DNA from: an uncultured Prochlorococcus sp.
Lineage (GTDB): Bacteria; Cyanobacteriota; Cyanobacteriia; PCC-6307; Cyanobiaceae
Direction of reading: 5' to 3'
Assembly: GCA_902624785.1 (NCBI GenBank)
Contig: CACNYU010000006.1
Coordinates: forward strand, 1 to 48,345
Length of the DNA: 48,345 nt
The position numbers were made by a program, and so were the translations under genes. Shown here piece by piece: positions 13,301 to 47,229 of this stretch. The notes beneath the pieces were generated by a model. The model saw only the letters and a list, made by a program, of their open reading frames with translations, was not told where the DNA came from and did not search any database. Every line of letters begins with the position of its first letter. The first letter of the stretch is position 1.

Positions 13301-14553
13301 GCGGTACTGGAACGGGTAAAACTCTCTCAGCTATATTGGCAGCTCAAGTTTGTAATTCTCAAAGGATATTTATTTCCTGTCCAAATGGAGTAATCGATAG
13401 TTGGATAAGAACTTTTAGATCAGGTTTCCCAGATGCAATACTTCATATAAAGCCTGAAAATTGGTTAATTAATCTGTTTTCAAAAAAAGTAAATGTAGTA
13501 ATAGTAAATCACGAGAGGTTTCAAGATAGATTCTCAGATAATCTTTTAAAATTTTGTACTGATTTTGCCTCAGATATGATCGTGATCGATGAAATACATC
13601 AATCTAAGCAGAGAAAGTTAAATGAATCGAGTCAAAGAAGAAGATTAATAAATGAATTTATTCGTATTTCAATAAACTCAAATCCTGAAACTCGAGTATT
13701 AGGATTATCTGCAACTCCAGTAATTAATAATATTTATGAAGGAAGATCTTTGGTTGAACTTGTAACTCAGGAAACTCTTTTTGATGTAAAAGAAAATGAT
13801 TTTAATTCATGCATGAACCTTTATCAACACTTCATCTTAAATGGAATAAGAATGAATCCAGGAAACTTGCCTAGGACAGAAATTATACCCCAAAATGTTG
13901 ATGCGACAGCTTTGCTACCTGAGATAATTGCATATACAAGAAATGGTTTATATCACCATGTTGAAAGGCTTTTAGTTAAACCAAAATTGAGCGTTTTAAA
14001 CGAGTGTATTAAGAAAGGCGAACGAATAATAATTTTCATAACACAAATCAAAGGGACTTTAATACCAATTACAAATTGGCTCAATAAAAATCAATTTAGT
14101 TTTTCTGTGTATACGGGAGATCATAAAAAAGCAACTGAAGATGGATTTAAAGATTCTCTCGATGAATTTATTAGAGGAGATACAGAGGTTTTGGTGGCGT
14201 CTGTAAAGTGCGTTGGGACTGGAGTTGATGGGCTTCAATCTGTATGTAGTAAAGCTGTATTTTTTCAATTACCTTGGACCTCTACTGAGTTTGAACAATC
14301 CATAGGAAGATTGGATAGAGATGGGACTGAATTTGAATCTGTAAGAGTTTACCTTCCTTTAACCAATATAAATCTGCCGAATGGTGATAGTTGGAGCTGG
14401 TGTCGAAATAAAATGGATAGGATAAGGAGAAAAAAAGATATTGCAAAAGCGGCAGTTGATGGAGAAATACCTGATGAGGATGAAATTTTCACTCCAGCTG
14501 AAGCGAGTAAATACTGGTTGGAATGGCTCAAAAGATTAGATGGTGAGAATTAA
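10312..14553 (+). CDS. Alpha-CTD-like / sigma region 4-like / SNF2-type helicase fusion
   Basis: A 1413-residue protein. The N-terminus (1-250) is Lys/Glu-rich and helical. Residues about 263-325 (LSNLNLRLPTYNLLKRV ... LSLRGFGKNKFEDLKNAL) match the RNA polymerase alpha C-terminal domain pattern. Residues about 468-500 (LAEIGREFELSRERIRQME) are a sigma-70 region 4-type helix-turn-helix. A middle region of unknown type follows. From about 950 there is an SF2/SNF2 helicase: Walker A SGTGTGKT near 997-1004, CPNGVIDSW, DEIH near 1091, GLSATP near 1131, GTGVDGLQ and QSIGRLDRDG near 1329. ATP-driven translocation on DNA is expected from the family; promoter or polymerase targeting is inferred. It stands alone, after a decayed integrase, with no visible operon partner. 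Confidence 0.85.
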   Translation: MVKNRDWLKKVGEWLINQSTEENINQASYEILERLNEEIKQLHQEKAQNVNKKVSKVKDKEETIHNENFKKSILNELNVERAYKIFLLSWEDEGFSSRYFLNANDAKVMLGNLDIQFREELKTWLFKSSNQVEIIHDIEKIIRRRRSDASDDINSIRAYSYISVLLNKNQFDLKKEKEEVKKGDKKEEPFEIFPEITNKENIHPFFTDRELEKEQHGDFKKEECIDKENPKKFIEDREIIFNATIQPQYKSDQHNSVLSKDIPLSNLNLRLPTYNLLKRVNKEYISDLAGMNENDFLSLRGFGKNKFEDLKNALKRVGIQIPFEFKNNLETKANKNRAKEKIVPLKLNYEDFFWEECTKKFRKEKINAENIIRILDDFTDFTIEINIENFEIFNNSNNIQTVFNSLISTFKIDALKNSIEEQKKNYIISVFFKKFIFHETLVGARKWVFKLQKKFLENTNYFEIIYKRLNNESLAEIGREFELSRERIRQMEAKVFKIIGVSSNDFRKGYGKCLDKIKNTKESEKIEEYFSNYHHLPFPDEENSLLENNEFLKNISKINPFERLEMYRKYNLEIPKTEYDYHYDLINKSGIVGFGYWNEFKNLKEFLYRHANILGQPDLMPKITDTPKRMAPVIKKYGGQSGVAKKIGLQYQGQLVNTDGGRLYWNDERLFKLLNDVNKFSKQKVEIMPSYAQIIDFFKDSDSQEYEDKKPVSAIAALTKSGNFSWLEVAQKFNKKHYSGSTQRVTVQFIKAFVRDLGEHLTVLSPAELYVVFKAQGINKKEQAKFSRTFDVLIDAVQTGVVDKKDLEDWSNNLDVPSIKELLNLGSEVKLKNSKEEKEKRLLKGRANILKREYEDSKSIRLNEIPKEELQNPDPGKTLRALDKAAGILEATEKDVESIEFLKAKASSKLWDSCFAAVHTGKEETLIRNLESSKLGIDTYSKEIRNKFLEEYHGAKNLLIPKSYKFRDLKGKEREPKLMQKLVSFRLLRDKRILNLSGTGTGKTLSAILAAQVCNSQRIFISCPNGVIDSWIRTFRSGFPDAILHIKPENWLINLFSKKVNVVIVNHERFQDRFSDNLLKFCTDFASDMIVIDEIHQSKQRKLNESSQRRRLINEFIRISINSNPETRVLGLSATPVINNIYEGRSLVELVTQETLFDVKENDFNSCMNLYQHFILNGIRMNPGNLPRTEIIPQNVDATALLPEIIAYTRNGLYHHVERLLVKPKLSVLNECIKKGERIIIFITQIKGTLIPITNWLNKNQFSFSVYTGDHKKATEDGFKDSLDEFIRGDTEVLVASVKCVGTGVDGLQSVCSKAVFFQLPWTSTEFEQSIGRLDRDGTEFESVRVYLPLTNINLPNGDSWSWCRNKMDRIRRKKDIAKAAVDGEIPDEDEIFTPAEASKYWLEWLKRLDGEN

Positions 14554-14887
14554 AAAATTATCCTGAGTCCGAACCTAACTAATAAAATATTTTTTTAATT
14601 CCTTGTTAACCCTCAATTAGCATATTGGTCTTATTATTTTCCTTATTGTTCCACAAGCAAATAGTTTATCTTGAAAAATATTACATATTTTTCTCATAGT
14701 TGTGATTAATTATTTATATAGTTCTAGGTTATTTAATTTTTTTTAGGTATCATCAATAATTTTAGAGTAATTAAGGTGATCTTGTATTAATACCGAAAAA
14801 AAGGTCGTATGAAAAAATATTTTCGGTGAGGAGGGTTATTACAAACAAATCACACAAAGAACAAATATCTAATCTTTGAGACTCCAA

Positions 14888-14932
14888 TTGGAGCGACAGG
14901 ATTCGAAGCTGAGACCTAGTGCTCAAAAAGAA
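14888..14932 (-). repeat. tRNA-Pro(UGG) 3' fragment, copy 1 (degenerate)
   Basis: The reverse strand of this segment resembles the anticodon loop to the acceptor end of tRNA-Pro, with several substitutions in the T arm and anticodon loop. The 5' half of the tRNA is missing. It is the leftmost and one of the most decayed copies. Confidence 0.75.
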
Positions 14933-15092
14933 CAAAACCTACAAATTGAGATACTCCTTAAATAATACTTGTATTGGTAGAACTTATGAGTCAAAAGATA
15001 GTAATAAAGATAAATCTCAGGATTGTATTTAAGTTATACGAAGACTGTAGTAGATATACAGATAATCGCTAATTAAAAGGTTAGTTAAAAAT

Positions 15093-15827
15093 CTATCTCC
15101 AAGCTCCATAGATAAATCTTCCAATGATTTCTCTAATTGCGTTAGAACTTTTATTTAAAGAAGATGCACTGGGCATCCAGCTTAATGGATTACGTAATGA
15201 AGCAAAAAAACTTTTATTGCTTTTAAAATCTACAGGATATGGTTGAACACTTATCCCTTCACCCTCAAAAACTTTTTTTGCCCTTTTCATGTGAAAGGCA
15301 CTTGTTACTAGAATGACCCTTTTTTGAATTAAGGACGAGTCATTATTAAGTAATTTCTTAATTGCTTTAGCTTCCTGAAGAGTATTATTTACAGGATCTG
15401 TGGTAAATAAATCTTCTTTTGGTAGCCCCATTGAAATAGCTTCCTTAATAAAGACATCTCCTTCTGGAGGTAACTCAGGAGTTAAAGGATTTATTCCTCC
15501 TGTAAAAATCAACCTATTTGATTTATTCGCTTTATAAAGATCAATTCCAGCAAGAAACCTATCTGGGTCGTACCATTCAATTATTTTTGTATCTCCTGGA
15601 GGCAAATGCAATCCTCCACTTAAAACAACTATCCCATCTGAGGGAGCAAGTAAAGAATAATCTAATCTCTTCAATGGATATTCTAATAATCTCCACAAAA
15701 TATCAGAAAACAATCCATTGCTAAAAATAAGTAAGAGAATAAATGCTGAATAAATAAATTTTACTTTTTTTCTAAAAATAAAAACCAATAATAGGATTAA
15801 AACAACCCCCAGTGGAGAGAAAATCAA
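15093..15827 (-). CDS. ElyC/SanA/YdcF family (DUF218) membrane protein
   Basis: 244 residues. One to two N-terminal membrane segments (about 3-18 and 26-40) precede a Rossmann-like DUF218 domain with GIVVLSGG, LIFTGG, a TTDPVNNTLQEA segment and LVTSAFHMKRA, the conserved blocks of YdcF/ElyC proteins. Members affect envelope or peptidoglycan assembly in other bacteria; the reaction is not established. The position 15827 is a TTG start; the frame stays open upstream through LSKLLP, which looks like true N-terminal sequence, but no ATG or GTG is available, so the start is uncertain or has been mutated. The gene is the only cargo between two tRNA-Pro fragments. Confidence 0.8.
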   Translation of the reverse strand: MIFSPLGVVLILLLVFIFRKKVKFIYSAFILLLIFSNGLFSDILWRLLEYPLKRLDYSLLAPSDGIVVLSGGLHLPPGDTKIIEWYDPDRFLAGIDLYKANKSNRLIFTGGINPLTPELPPEGDVFIKEAISMGLPKEDLFTTDPVNNTLQEAKAIKKLLNNDSSLIQKRVILVTSAFHMKRAKKVFEGEGISVQPYPVDFKSNKSFFASLRNPLSWMPSASSLNKSSNAIREIIGRFIYGAWR

Positions 15828-15996
15828 AGGTAATAATTTGCTGAGTAAGTACGTATCTAAAAATATTATCTTAATATATCCTAGTGAAACAGATTGCCAG
15901 TTTTCAAAAATATGTCTAAAGTTAATAAACCTAAGTTAAACAACGACATACAAATAATCGCTATTTAATCACTGCATAGAATACTAAAAACGCAAT

Positions 15997-16042
15997 CGGG
16001 GCGATAGGATTCGAACCTGCGAATTAGTCCTCCCAAAGAACA
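15997..16042 (-). repeat. tRNA-Pro(UGG) 3' fragment, copy 2
   Basis: Acceptor 3' strand and T arm are nearly intact (cggggcgataggattcgaac on plus), whereas the anticodon stem is altered. The 5' half is absent. It bounds the DUF218 cassette on the right and the polysaccharide block on the left. Confidence 0.85.
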
Positions 16043-16329
16043 GTAAGTAATAAAGTCATACTATAGTTCGTTTTTAAGATTTGATTATACTCCACCTAGG
16101 TGCTTGCATACGTTTTAATGTCATAGAGAAATAATAGGTACTTAATTAAAGCCATTTAAATGAAAATTGTAAAAAGTCGCTCTTTCAAAAAATCTTAATA
16201 GTTACTAATTAATTTCATAAGTACACGTTTTATAGTGAATCTCAATTTTGAATAATTATGTTTTTTTTAAAATGAAATCTTCGATAATATTATTAACCTA
16301 AGTATGATTAAATCTAAATAAAATAATCA

Positions 16330-25746: not shown

Positions 25747-26265
25747 TTGAAAAAAGATTTTTCACATAACAGCGGATTCTCTTTAATTGAATTAATAATT
25801 GTTATTGCAGTTCTCTCAATTTTATCTGCAGTAGCCATCCCTTCATTTATCGGCATAAGAAATAGTGCAAAAGTATCTGCAGTTAAAAAATCTCTTGTAA
25901 ACATCCTAAAAGAATGTTTAGTAGCAGAATCAAATTTATCGGGAAATCCAACTTTTAATGATATCGGCGCCTGGGATACAACTAATTCATTTGGGGATAG
26001 CAGAGGATTAAATTTTGGCTTTACTTATGATTCTGACCTTAGTTCTAGCTCTCCAATACAACCTTCTGACTCTTGCTTTAGAATTGCAGCGAAATCAAAT
26101 ACACAGGACATAGGTGGAGTACCTATTCCAGTTCTTCCTCATTTCGAAATATTTTTAGATAGAAGCGATAAATATAAAGTCAAGAAAAATTGTTCCGCTA
26201 GTAATGCAAAGACAATTAATAATAACTTTTGTGATACAAGTGCACCAGAAGGCAGTCAGTGGTGA
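25747..26265 (+). CDS. Type IV pilin-like protein C
   Basis: 172 residues from a TTG start. FSLIELIIVIAVLSILSAVA comes right after a Gly. The head (CFRIAAKS, LPHFEIFLDRSDKYKVKKNC, NNFCDTSAPEGSQW) matches the head of pilin A and also that of the 40906 membrane protein. No ATG lies upstream in frame, so TTG is probably genuine; the 39924 pilin gene also starts with TTG. Confidence 0.82.
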   Translation: MKKDFSHNSGFSLIELIIVIAVLSILSAVAIPSFIGIRNSAKVSAVKKSLVNILKECLVAESNLSGNPTFNDIGAWDTTNSFGDSRGLNFGFTYDSDLSSSSPIQPSDSCFRIAAKSNTQDIGGVPIPVLPHFEIFLDRSDKYKVKKNCSASNAKTINNNFCDTSAPEGSQW

Positions 26266-26314: not shown

Positions 26315-27361
26315 TCAACAAATTGGAACTTCAGCAATACCATAATTATAACCCCAGTAATCATTAGAGTCTTTATTAAAATAATAATCGCGACCAGTAT
26401 TTGGCTCCCTCCACCATGTATTTAACCCACCGTTTCTCTGTGCATGGCCTGATGGATCTTTAATAAGTATATGAAAACCTGATGTTACATTATTATTTTT
26501 GTATTCATCTGGGTAGTTTTCTTGCGAGCCCCCATAAGGCGAACTAAACCCTCTATCCAGAACTTCACCATTGGCAAAACTCAAATTACCAGAGGCATCA
26601 CTTTTGAGTCCTATCCAAGCCCCAGCTCTTTCTCCGTTATTCCAATTAGAGTCTCTTTCAGTTAACTTTTCTGTATATTCATCAATTAAAAATTTGTTTT
26701 CATCAGAGTTATTTGGGGTAGTTAAATTACCTCCTAGCTTTTCTGCATTTTCTTGGGCTTCATCCCATGAAGAGCCTTTTACTAGCGCATATGCTGAACA
26801 ACCTCTTTCTGAATAACTTCCATCCATTACAACCTCAGAATTTTGCTCAATGCTTGCTAATACATTTGCTCTATTAGTTGTGATGAGTTGACTATTTCTT
26901 GAGATATAAGCTTCATTATCATCATCACAAACTAAAGCTAAACACGTTTTAAAATTCTTTCCCTTAATTCCTTTGAAAGAAAAAGTTAATTCTTTATTAG
27001 TCATGGAATATATAAATGTTGGCAACAAATTTGCATTATTAATGTTGGGTTCTAGGGTTATATTTTTATTGCCACATTGAACTTTTCCGCTTGAAGATGA
27101 ATTTAATAATGCTTTATATCCAGAGATATTAACTCGTTGAAAAGAAGAAATATTTGACACGTCAAGAGCACCTGAAATTTCACATTCTTTTTGAATATTT
27201 ATTGCAGATTTTAAAGCAGCAGTTGCTTTAGCCTTTCTTTGAACACAAATAAAAGATGGAATCGCAATCGCACCTAATATTGAAAGTACTGAAATTACGA
27301 CAACCAACTCTATTAAAGAAAATCCAGAATTAGAGGAAGTTAATTTGTTGTCTAATTTCAT
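26315..27361 (-). CDS. Pilin with a C-type-lectin-like C-terminal domain
   Basis: 348 residues from the ATG at 27361; an upstream in-frame ATG at 27388 is less likely because it would lengthen the leader. FSLIELVVVISVLSILGAIA is the prepilin helix. A pilin-like head with Cys pairs spans about 50-165. The C-terminal 160 residues look like a C-type lectin fold: SSWDEAQENAEKLGGNLTTP, AGAWIGLKSD (the WIGL core), NTWWREPNTG and YGIAEVPIC at the end. Such a head would present a ligand-binding or phage-contact surface on a pilus. It is convergent with pilin C. Confidence 0.8.
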   Translation of the reverse strand: MKLDNKLTSSNSGFSLIELVVVISVLSILGAIAIPSFICVQRKAKATAALKSAINIQKECEISGALDVSNISSFQRVNISGYKALLNSSSSGKVQCGNKNITLEPNINNANLLPTFIYSMTNKELTFSFKGIKGKNFKTCLALVCDDDNEAYISRNSQLITTNRANVLASIEQNSEVVMDGSYSERGCSAYALVKGSSWDEAQENAEKLGGNLTTPNNSDENKFLIDEYTEKLTERDSNWNNGERAGAWIGLKSDASGNLSFANGEVLDRGFSSPYGGSQENYPDEYKNNNVTSGFHILIKDPSGHAQRNGGLNTWWREPNTGRDYYFNKDSNDYWGYNYGIAEVPIC

Positions 27362-27526
27362 TAAATTTAGTGAAACTAAAATAAGCATAATTCAAAGAAT
27401 ATTTTTGGTTAGAAAATTTAAAGTTATTTTAAAAATATCTTTAGAGCATACTCTCACTCAAGTTAGGCGTGAAGCAATTATTTGCGAGGATTAGGTATTA
27501 GCTGAGACTTATCGCTATAACAGATC

Positions 27527-28346: not shown

Positions 28347-28399
28347 TCTAATTTTTAGGTTAAATATATTATTAGCTACAACTTACTGCTTTAACTGAT

Positions 28400-28446
28400 C
28401 GAGGCGACAGGATTCGAACCTGCGACCTAGTGATCCCAAAGCACTT
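28400..28446 (-). repeat. tRNA-Pro(UGG) 3' fragment, copy 5
   Basis: Two differences from the best copy (cgaggcg and gtgatccc). It is followed by a segment shared with copies 3 and 9 (tagcactaagtttccaatcta) and preceded by the conserved ttattagct...taactgat flank. Confidence 0.9.
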
Positions 28447-28619: not shown

Positions 28620-28922
28620 ATGAAAAATTTTTCATTTTTATTTTTGGCATTAGCCTTTTTTATCGCATTACCTTCTTATTCCAATCCAACCTTTGAGAAA
28701 AGTAGTTTTATAAAAATGCGCAAGCGATTTCAAAAGATCGATAAGAATGGAGATGGACTTCTCTCTAAAGGCGAGATGATGGAAGCGCATCGTGATCGTA
28801 TAGATAAACTATTTTTGAATTTTGATAAGAATGGAGATGGTAAGTTATCAAGAAAAGAACTACGAGCAGTTAAACAAGAAATGAAAAAAAGGATATATAA
28901 ATTTAGCAATGAGGGAAAGTAA
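28620..28922 (+). CDS. Secreted EF-hand protein
   Basis: 100 residues from the ATG at 28620, chosen because it opens a normal signal peptide (MKNFSFLFLALAFFIALPSY, cut near SNP). The mature part has two EF-hand loops, DKNGDGLLSKGEM and DKNGDGKLSRKEL, with all calcium-coordinating positions filled. It should bind Ca2+ in the periplasm. Only 3 nt separate its stop from the sigma factor start, so it is the first gene of a three-gene operon and a candidate sensor for the sigma/anti-sigma pair. It starts about 70 bp right of an 11-bp repeat pair. Confidence 0.85.
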   Translation: MKNFSFLFLALAFFIALPSYSNPTFEKSSFIKMRKRFQKIDKNGDGLLSKGEMMEAHRDRIDKLFLNFDKNGDGKLSRKELRAVKQEMKKRIYKFSNEGK

Positions 28923-28925
28923 AGT

Positions 28926-29480
28926 ATGTCTGCGGACCTTAGTTCTTATATGCTCAAAGTGGCAAAGGGTGATAAGGAATCTTTCCGATTCATTGCAAAC
29001 TCTTTGGGATATAAAATGTATGAAACAGCAATTAAGATTTTGGGTTCATCGCATTTTGAGGATGCAGATGATGTAGTACAAATTTCTTTAATTAAAGTAT
29101 GGCAATCAGCTCCTAATTGGGTAAATAAAGGGAGTGTAGAAGGATATATTCATAAAATCGTTTTTTCAACTTGTATGGACTTTTTTAGGAGATATAAAAG
29201 TGCTGAAGAATTTAAAGATAATTATTCCAACTTAGAAATTACAAATAAAAATTACACAACAAGTGAATTAAGAAAAATGCTTTTAAAAAATATTCAAAAA
29301 CTTCCTAAAGAACAGGAAGAAGCCATTTTGCTACATTATTTTTGCGGCTATAAACAGAGAGAAGTCTCTAGGATCTTAAAAAAAAGTGACAAGGCAACTG
29401 AAAGCCTTATTATTCGTGCTCGCAAAAAGTTAAAAACTATTTTGCCAAATAATATTTTGGAGGAATTTTTGTATGTCTAA
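28926..29480 (+). CDS. ECF-type sigma-70 factor
   Basis: 184 residues. Region 2 is seen in FEDADDVVQISLIKVWQS and IHKIVFSTCMDFFRRYK. Region 4 is seen in LPKEQEEAILLHYFCGYKQ and REVSRILKKSDKATESLIIR with the recognition helix. There is no region 3 or 1.1, as in extracytoplasmic-function sigma factors. It is coupled to an EF-hand gene (3-nt gap) and to a downstream one-TM protein whose start overlaps its end by 8 nt. An operon that reads an external signal, possibly calcium, is inferred. Confidence 0.88.
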   Translation: MSADLSSYMLKVAKGDKESFRFIANSLGYKMYETAIKILGSSHFEDADDVVQISLIKVWQSAPNWVNKGSVEGYIHKIVFSTCMDFFRRYKSAEEFKDNYSNLEITNKNYTTSELRKMLLKNIQKLPKEQEEAILLHYFCGYKQREVSRILKKSDKATESLIIRARKKLKTILPNNILEEFLYV

Positions 29481-29733
29481 ATTACAAAAGGAACGTCTTA
29501 ATCAAATGATTGAGAATGCACTTTCTTATAAACAGGAAATTAAAATATTTAAATCTAATTCTTTGCATAAAAGGCTTAAAGACTTAATTCTTAAGCCAAA
29601 CGTTTATGGATTAACTTTTATCTCATTCATTATTTCTTGCATTTTTATTCCTCAAATAGTGATATCTAGGAATATTGTGGATATTAATGAAATTAATGAT
29701 TTCGTGACTTATGGGATTATTGAGGACTTATAG
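29473..29733 (+). CDS. Putative anti-sigma factor, one TM
   Basis: 86 residues. A basic N-terminal cytoplasmic part (about 1-45) precedes one membrane helix (VYGLTFISFIISCIFIPQIV) and a short external tail. The start overlaps the sigma gene by 8 nt. No zinc-type ZAS motif is visible, so the name rests on position, size and topology, which are those of ECF anti-sigma proteins. The acidic tail could contact the EF-hand protein. Confidence 0.6.
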   Translation: MSKLQKERLNQMIENALSYKQEIKIFKSNSLHKRLKDLILKPNVYGLTFISFIISCIFIPQIVISRNIVDINEINDFVTYGIIEDL

Positions 29734-32583: not shown

Positions 32584-33861
<1,278 letters not shown>

Positions 33862-47177: not shown

Positions 47178-47229
47178 TCTACTTTTTAGATTAAATATAT
47201 TATTAGCTGAGACTTACTGCTATAACTGA

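What the first reader, a model, noticed from the sequence alone, without database searches (positions are those of the whole stretch)
28620..29733. EF-hand / ECF sigma / anti-sigma operon, a possible calcium-sensing switch
A periplasmic protein with two full EF-hand loops is coupled by a 3-nt gap to an ECF sigma gene, which overlaps a one-TM protein by 8 nt. This is the layout of sensor-regulated ECF systems, with calcium as the likely ligand, which would be unusual in the streamlined regulation of Prochlorococcus. It could control nearby surface genes.
Basis: partly seen in the sequence, partly recalled or inferred. Interest (0 to 1): 0.72.

Follow-up and report, generated by a model that had tools for sequence, protein, structure and literature searches.

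The report
Mobile EF-hand/ECF sigma/anti-sigma cassette in Prochlorococcus
A few strains of the tiny ocean cyanobacterium Prochlorococcus carry a three-gene switch (a calcium-binding protein of the cell's outer compartment, a specialised transcription factor and its probable membrane inhibitor) that moves around the genome as a unit, appears to turn itself on, and in some strains probably also turns on a secreted protein-cutting enzyme.

Summary
All three genes are under purifying selection. The triplet recurs, always together, in 17 of 200 Prochlorococcus genomes. It was found in no other genus sampled, and it is the only clear ECF sigma in that genus sample. It sits in about 16 different neighbourhoods, often between tRNA-Pro 3' remnants, so it is a mobile island cassette rather than a regulator of its neighbours here. 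A promoter-like motif, GCGAAGGrTTTT-N11/12-CGTTAA, precedes the EF-hand gene in every readable copy (autoregulation). Within ~10 kb of 17 triplets, the only other intergenic sites (three genomes) all precede one gene pair: a secreted glycine-zipper protein and a trypsin-like protease, a candidate regulon. Best reading: a CnrYXH-like membrane switch with an EF-hand protein in the sensor position, resembling Caulobacter CaBP-SigV plus the membrane component missing there. Calcium binding is very likely; calcium concentration as the signal is doubtful, because seawater Ca2+ is nearly constant (own knowledge). Sigma-binding by the TM protein and EF-hand signalling are inferred; the TM protein shows no detectable homology to known anti-sigma factors.

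The parts
28397..28446 (-). 3' fragment of tRNA-Pro (50 nt, 96% identical to the tRNA-Pro 3' end at 47228), likely cassette boundary / attachment-type remnant
   Evidence: blastn of the tRNA-Pro 3' end; same repeats flank the triplet on both sides in L022 and L023
28565..28594 (+). Putative ECF autoregulatory promoter GCGAAGGATTTT-N12-CGTTAA
   Evidence: Conserved upstream of the EF gene in all triplet loci with readable upstream sequence while flanks diverge; 11 of 11 triplet genomes searched carry it; other genomic matches are inside ORFs or at chance level
28620..28922 (+). Secreted/periplasmic EF-hand protein, 100 aa, two canonical loops, N-terminal signal-peptide-like helix
   Evidence: Pfam EF-hand; ligand conservation; helix-loop-helix arrangement in AlphaFold model
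28926..29480 (+). ECF sigma factor, 184 aa (regions 2 and 4)
   Evidence: Pfam, NCBIfam ECF models, PDB ECF matches including CnrH 4cxf E 1.1e-6
29473..29733 (+). Probable single-pass anti-sigma factor, 86 aa: conserved cytosolic helix, TM about 46-64, conserved periplasmic tail
   Evidence: Mean identity 87/44/60/64% over N-helix/linker/TM/tail; helices 3-40, 42-66, 71-85 in a low-to-medium confidence model; hydropathy; no family match

Best explanation
A self-amplifying transmembrane sigma switch carried as a mobile cassette. Shown by sequence: a conserved EF-hand/ECF/one-TM operon behind a conserved promoter-like motif, whose only other matches near triplets precede a secreted glycine-zipper protein/trypsin-like protease pair. 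Inferred: the ECF sigma recognises that motif. Without signal it is held at the membrane by the short TM protein, through its highly conserved N-terminal cytosolic helix. The secreted EF-hand protein, folded around Ca2+, acts on the TM protein's conserved periplasmic tail to control release, in the position CnrX occupies relative to CnrY and CnrH. Released sigma raises its own operon and, where present, the secreted protease pair. Ca2+ is the likely bound ion; whether its concentration is the signal is left open and thought unlikely in seawater. Step confidence (judgement): ECF 0.95; autoregulation 0.85; TM protein as anti-sigma 0.85; protease pair as target 0.7; EF-hand protein signalling to the TM protein 0.55; Ca2+ concentration as signal about 0.15-0.2.
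For: Triplet always together: 17/200 genus genomes with the ECF, 16 with the EF-hand family, the exception being cut by a contig start. Purifying selection on all three genes. EF ligand positions invariant. ECF related to CnrH and to alphaproteobacterial ECFs sitting in ECF/TM/periplasmic-metal-sensor operons, some with EF-hand genes alongside. Conserved promoter motif, specific to the operon among triplet genomes searched. Three extra intergenic motif sites in about 330 kb scanned, all 25-60 nt before the same gene pair; they also share the GCG prefix that was not part of the query. Published precedent: Caulobacter SigV drives cabp, CaBP affects sigV, and the authors postulate a missing membrane component (PMC13171946).
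Against: The TM protein shows no detectable homology to any anti-sigma family or to the alphaproteobacterial TM proteins. No complex was modelled. In Caulobacter, CaBP had little effect on its own promoter, so an EF-hand protein can be an output rather than a sensor. The three target promoters come from genomes that partly share neighbourhood, so they are perhaps two independent cases. The pair is absent from the window, and most other triplet genomes could not be searched for it. The TM protein is the least constrained (dN/dS 0.42).
Confidence: 0.6

Rival explanations
1. The EF-hand protein is an output, not the sensor: a periplasmic Ca2+-binding buffer or chaperone (for example for the co-regulated secreted protease) made when the sigma factor is active; the TM protein alone senses the envelope signal.
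For: The EF-hand gene is the first gene after the autoregulated promoter. In Caulobacter SigV strongly drives cabp while CaBP has minimal effect on the promoter. The candidate co-regulated product is a secreted trypsin-like protease.
Against: The EF-hand gene is never separated from the ECF and TM genes across about 16 contexts, and the TM tail is conserved (64%) as if it had a partner; neither excludes an output role.
Confidence: 0.27
2. Calcium-concentration switch as first proposed: free Ca2+ in the periplasm directly sets sigma activity.
For: Both EF loops canonical and their ligands invariant; Caulobacter cabp and sigV respond to Ca2+ limitation.
Against: Open-ocean Ca2+ is about 10 mM and nearly invariant (own knowledge), so a periplasmic EF-hand should be permanently loaded; no candidate target gene points to calcium homeostasis.
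Confidence: 0.1
3. Self-contained regulatory cassette: the sigma factor essentially drives only its own mobile operon, and the motif before the protease pair reflects shared island ancestry.
For: No further convincing intergenic site in the nine triplet genomes searched; patchy distribution and one decayed copy.
Against: dN/dS well below 1 for all genes; target promoters retained although the proteases have diverged to 41% identity.
Confidence: 0.1

Closest known systems
Caulobacter vibrioides CaBP-SigV (CCNA_02838/CCNA_02837), PMC13171946
   Same: Secreted periplasmic EF-hand protein encoded directly beside an ECF sigma; sigma-dependent expression of the EF-hand gene; the reported -10 of cabp (CGTTCA) resembles the CGTTAA here.
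   Different: Three EF-hands, 133 aa; sigV reported to have its own promoter inside cabp; no cognate membrane protein identified (postulated only). The Prochlorococcus operon has a third gene overlapping the sigma gene. Orthology not tested.
Cupriavidus CnrYXH (CnrY anti-sigma, CnrX periplasmic metal sensor, CnrH ECF)
   Same: Three-gene logic: ECF, very short single-pass membrane protein, periplasmic metal-binding protein (CnrYXH roles from own knowledge); ECF matches CnrH (4cxf, E 1.1e-6).
   Different: The periplasmic protein is an EF-hand protein, not a CnrX-type sensor; no metal efflux genes nearby; TM protein not detectably homologous to any chain in the PDB.
Rhizobial EF-hand / ECF / TM / periplasmic heavy-metal-sensor neighbourhoods (L050 Neorhizobium, L078 Sinorhizobium, L076 Rhizobium)
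   Same: EF-hand gene(s) upstream of an ECF that overlaps or abuts a TM protein gene; the Neorhizobium ECF aligns over nearly full length.
   Different: They carry an additional CnrX-like gene, their TM proteins are longer (135-153 aa), and the one compared is not alignable with the Prochlorococcus one.

Membership tests
ECF (group 4) sigma-70 factors | Sigma70 region 2 and region 4 without regions 1.2/3 | tested here: met
   Sigma70_r2 3.7e-9, r4_2 1.4e-11, 184 aa, no other sigma region; TIGR02937 above its cut-off
ECF (group 4) sigma-70 factors | Own operon preceded by an ECF-type bipartite promoter (GGAA-like -35, CGT-like -10) | tested here: met
   Conserved GCGAAGGrTTTT-N11/12-CGTTAA before the operon in all readable copies; promoter activity itself not tested
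CnrYXH-type metal-responsive system | CnrH-related ECF | tested here: met
   4cxf_A E 1.1e-6, one of several similar ECF matches, so not specific
CnrYXH-type metal-responsive system | Short single-TM anti-sigma homologous to CnrY | tested here: inconclusive
   Size and topology fit; no sequence match in PDB or Pfam
CnrYXH-type metal-responsive system | CnrX-type periplasmic heavy-metal sensor | tested here: not met
   Periplasmic partner is a two-EF-hand protein; no other gene in the cassette
CaBP-SigV circuit | Secreted EF-hand protein gene adjacent to an ECF gene | tested here: met
   Layout; comparison with PMC13171946
CaBP-SigV circuit | Orthology of both proteins to CCNA_02838/CCNA_02837 | not tested
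Anti-sigma factor (functional class) | Binds and inhibits the cognate sigma | not testable with these tools
   Needs an interaction assay; layout, overlap and conserved N-terminal helix are circumstantial
tRNA-targeted island cargo (tycheposon-like) | Flanking tRNA 3' direct repeats and variable location | tested here: met
   tRNA-Pro remnants on both sides in L022, L023, L033, L040; about 16 contexts; not in every genome (G144, G156)
tRNA-targeted island cargo (tycheposon-like) | Cognate tyrosine recombinase and replication/helicase module on the element | not tested
   None lies inside the 1.4-1.5 kb unit; the wider island was not searched for one

The most novel reading that the evidence does not exclude
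A mobile regulatory cassette gives some Prochlorococcus their only ECF pathway: a CnrYXH-like switch whose periplasmic sensor is an EF-hand protein and whose output is a secreted trypsin-like protease plus a glycine-zipper envelope protein. The overlapping TM gene is the kind of membrane link that the Caulobacter CaBP-SigV work lacks.
Probability: 0.4. Interest if true: 0.75.

Novelty: new variant of a known kind. Interest (0 to 1): 0.6.

Why it matters
Prochlorococcus is a textbook case of streamlined regulation, and 14 of its genomes were reported to hold only A.1-family sigma factors (PMC11119718). A dedicated ECF pathway that moves between island sites, with a predicted promoter and a secreted protease as candidate output, would be a portable trait-control module. 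It also supplies a concrete candidate architecture for the unidentified membrane component between a periplasmic EF-hand protein and its ECF factor. MIT 9302 (L028) and MIT 9401 (L040) carry intact copies and are named strains rather than single-cell genomes, so the idea is directly testable.

Tried and rejected
Regulation of the adjacent 29800-31374 gene: rejected (no motif, neighbours vary). Phage origin: no relative in viral contigs; the phage collection gave only remote sigma matches at 32% identity or less. Whole-genome regulon by motif: strict and relaxed patterns gave only the operon; other hits were mostly inside ORFs, with a few intergenic sites that do not precede a plausible shared target. 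One recurring intergenic near-match (TAAGGATTTT..CGATCYTTAA-like, 35 nt before an ORF of the radical-SAM HemN/HemW type by eye, in G144 and G545) lacks the CGTT core and was set aside. Homology of the TM protein to known anti-sigma factors: none by Pfam, PDB or hhalign. XopAW, deiodinase and lanmodulin models match the EF-hand protein only far below their cut-offs, generic EF-hand similarity. The sigma-70-type promoter scan found no more sites than shuffles.

Full report
1. Observation. Pfam supports the first two and knows nothing of the third. The TM protein has a single hydrophobic stretch (46-64) preceded by basic residues, which implies N-terminus inside (inference).

2. Conservation. The ECF was found in 17 of 200 Prochlorococcus genomes (7 of 66 near-complete ones). 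It was absent from the other 58 genera sampled in the family at E <= 1e-25 and the other 141 sampled in the phylum at E <= 1e-18. A scan of one genome for each of 84,980 species by two conserved peptides returned only Prochlorococcus. Every intact copy has the same gene order, and nearly all the same 8-nt overlap. The EF-hand family was found in exactly the same genomes, minus one where the contig begins inside the ECF. G122 holds a decayed ECF with stops. Median dN/dS over 78 pairs: 0.22 (EF), 0.19 (ECF), 0.42 (TM). EF loop positions 1, 5, 9 and 12 are invariant in 15 homologues.

3. The only clear ECF of the genus sample. With Sigma70_r4_2, the 17 strong matches (E < 1e-9) are the triplet ECFs; everything else listed is E >= 1e-6, on ORFs of about 92 or 246 aa that I did not identify. 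A survey found only A.1-family sigma factors in 14 Prochlorococcus (PMC11119718).

4. A mobile cassette. The 1.2-kb flanks of 23 triplet loci fall into 16 upstream and 16 downstream groups. tRNA-Pro 3' remnants lie close to the triplet in many; in L022 and L023 the triplet is alone between two of them, about 1.45 kb apart. In the one-contig genome G109 all seven such repeats lie within 1,049,996-1,064,041, around the triplet at 1,052,154. In the window one remnant lies at 28397-28446 and eight more are scattered on the same strand. In G144 and G156 the triplet lies away from these repeats, so the association is common, not universal.

5. Promoter. Upstream of the EF-hand gene the sequences are largely unrelated except for GCGAAGGrTTTT-N11/12-CGTTAA, ending about 25-30 nt before the ATG. 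It was found in all 11 triplet genomes searched, and elsewhere only as one coding match with a shorter spacer, which also occurs in triplet-free genomes. A looser pattern gave other sites below the reversed-pattern control, all inside ORFs.

6. Candidate regulon. I took about 10 kb on each side of 17 triplets and scanned with up to 3 mismatches. Besides the operon promoters there were three intergenic hits (L129 10613-, L137 16062-, L139 5226+), all 25-60 nt upstream of a secreted ~190-218 aa glycine-zipper protein (PF05433, just below cut-off) followed by a secreted trypsin-like protease (PF00089, 1.2e-5). The sites also share the GCG prefix, which was not part of the pattern. L137 is well diverged (protease 41% identical), yet the motif is kept.

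7. Mechanism. Shown: layout, conservation, motif and its recurrence. Inferred: the TM protein is the anti-sigma. Its 22-residue N-terminal helix is the best conserved part (87% mean identity), the linker is free (44%) and the periplasmic tail is again conserved and helical (64%), as expected of a protein with one partner on each side of the membrane. The EF-hand protein is the obvious periplasmic partner, by analogy with CnrX. I doubt Ca2+ concentration as the signal because seawater Ca2+ is high and constant (own knowledge); a Ca2+-loaded sensor of another envelope cue, or an EF-hand output protein, is at least as likely.

8. Known relatives. Nearest described case: Caulobacter CaBP-SigV (PMC13171946), where SigV drives cabp and the authors postulate an unidentified membrane link. 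Structural logic: CnrYXH (the ECF matches CnrH). Alphaproteobacterial plasmids hold ECF/TM/periplasmic heavy-metal-sensor operons, several with EF-hand genes alongside. Profile comparison finds the sigma factors related but not the TM proteins. I therefore file it as a new variant of ECF/anti-sigma systems, not as a CnrYXH member.

Noticed in passing
window 32584-33861 (+): Secreted protein with a signal-peptide-like start, a strikingly eukaryote-like ubiquitin domain (Pfam 1.3e-28, residues 24-93) and an autotransporter beta-domain (2.6e-26). A ubiquitin on an outer-membrane autotransporter in a cyanobacterium deserves its own examination.
   Followed up: no
window 14887, 15995, 23288, 27523, 28397, 41992, 45609, 46047, 47228 (all - strand): Dispersed 3' tRNA-Pro remnants or near-copies of 45-64 nt, marking the window as a Prochlorococcus genomic island; similar arrays cluster in other triplet genomes.
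   Followed up: partly
window 26315-27388 (-): Prepilin N-methylation motif fused to a C-type-lectin-like domain, next to another prepilin-like ORF at 25747-26265.
   Followed up: no
L129 8534-10640 (-), L137 about 14039-16090 (-), L139 5226-7351 (+): Secreted glycine-zipper protein plus trypsin-like protease pair behind the same promoter motif as the triplet.
   Followed up: partly
L078 442-3417; L050 2025-3869; L076 758-3410: Rhizobial plasmid clusters with EF-hand gene(s), ECF sigma, TM protein and CnrX-like heavy-metal sensor; I found no description of this combination in the papers I could search.
   Followed up: partly
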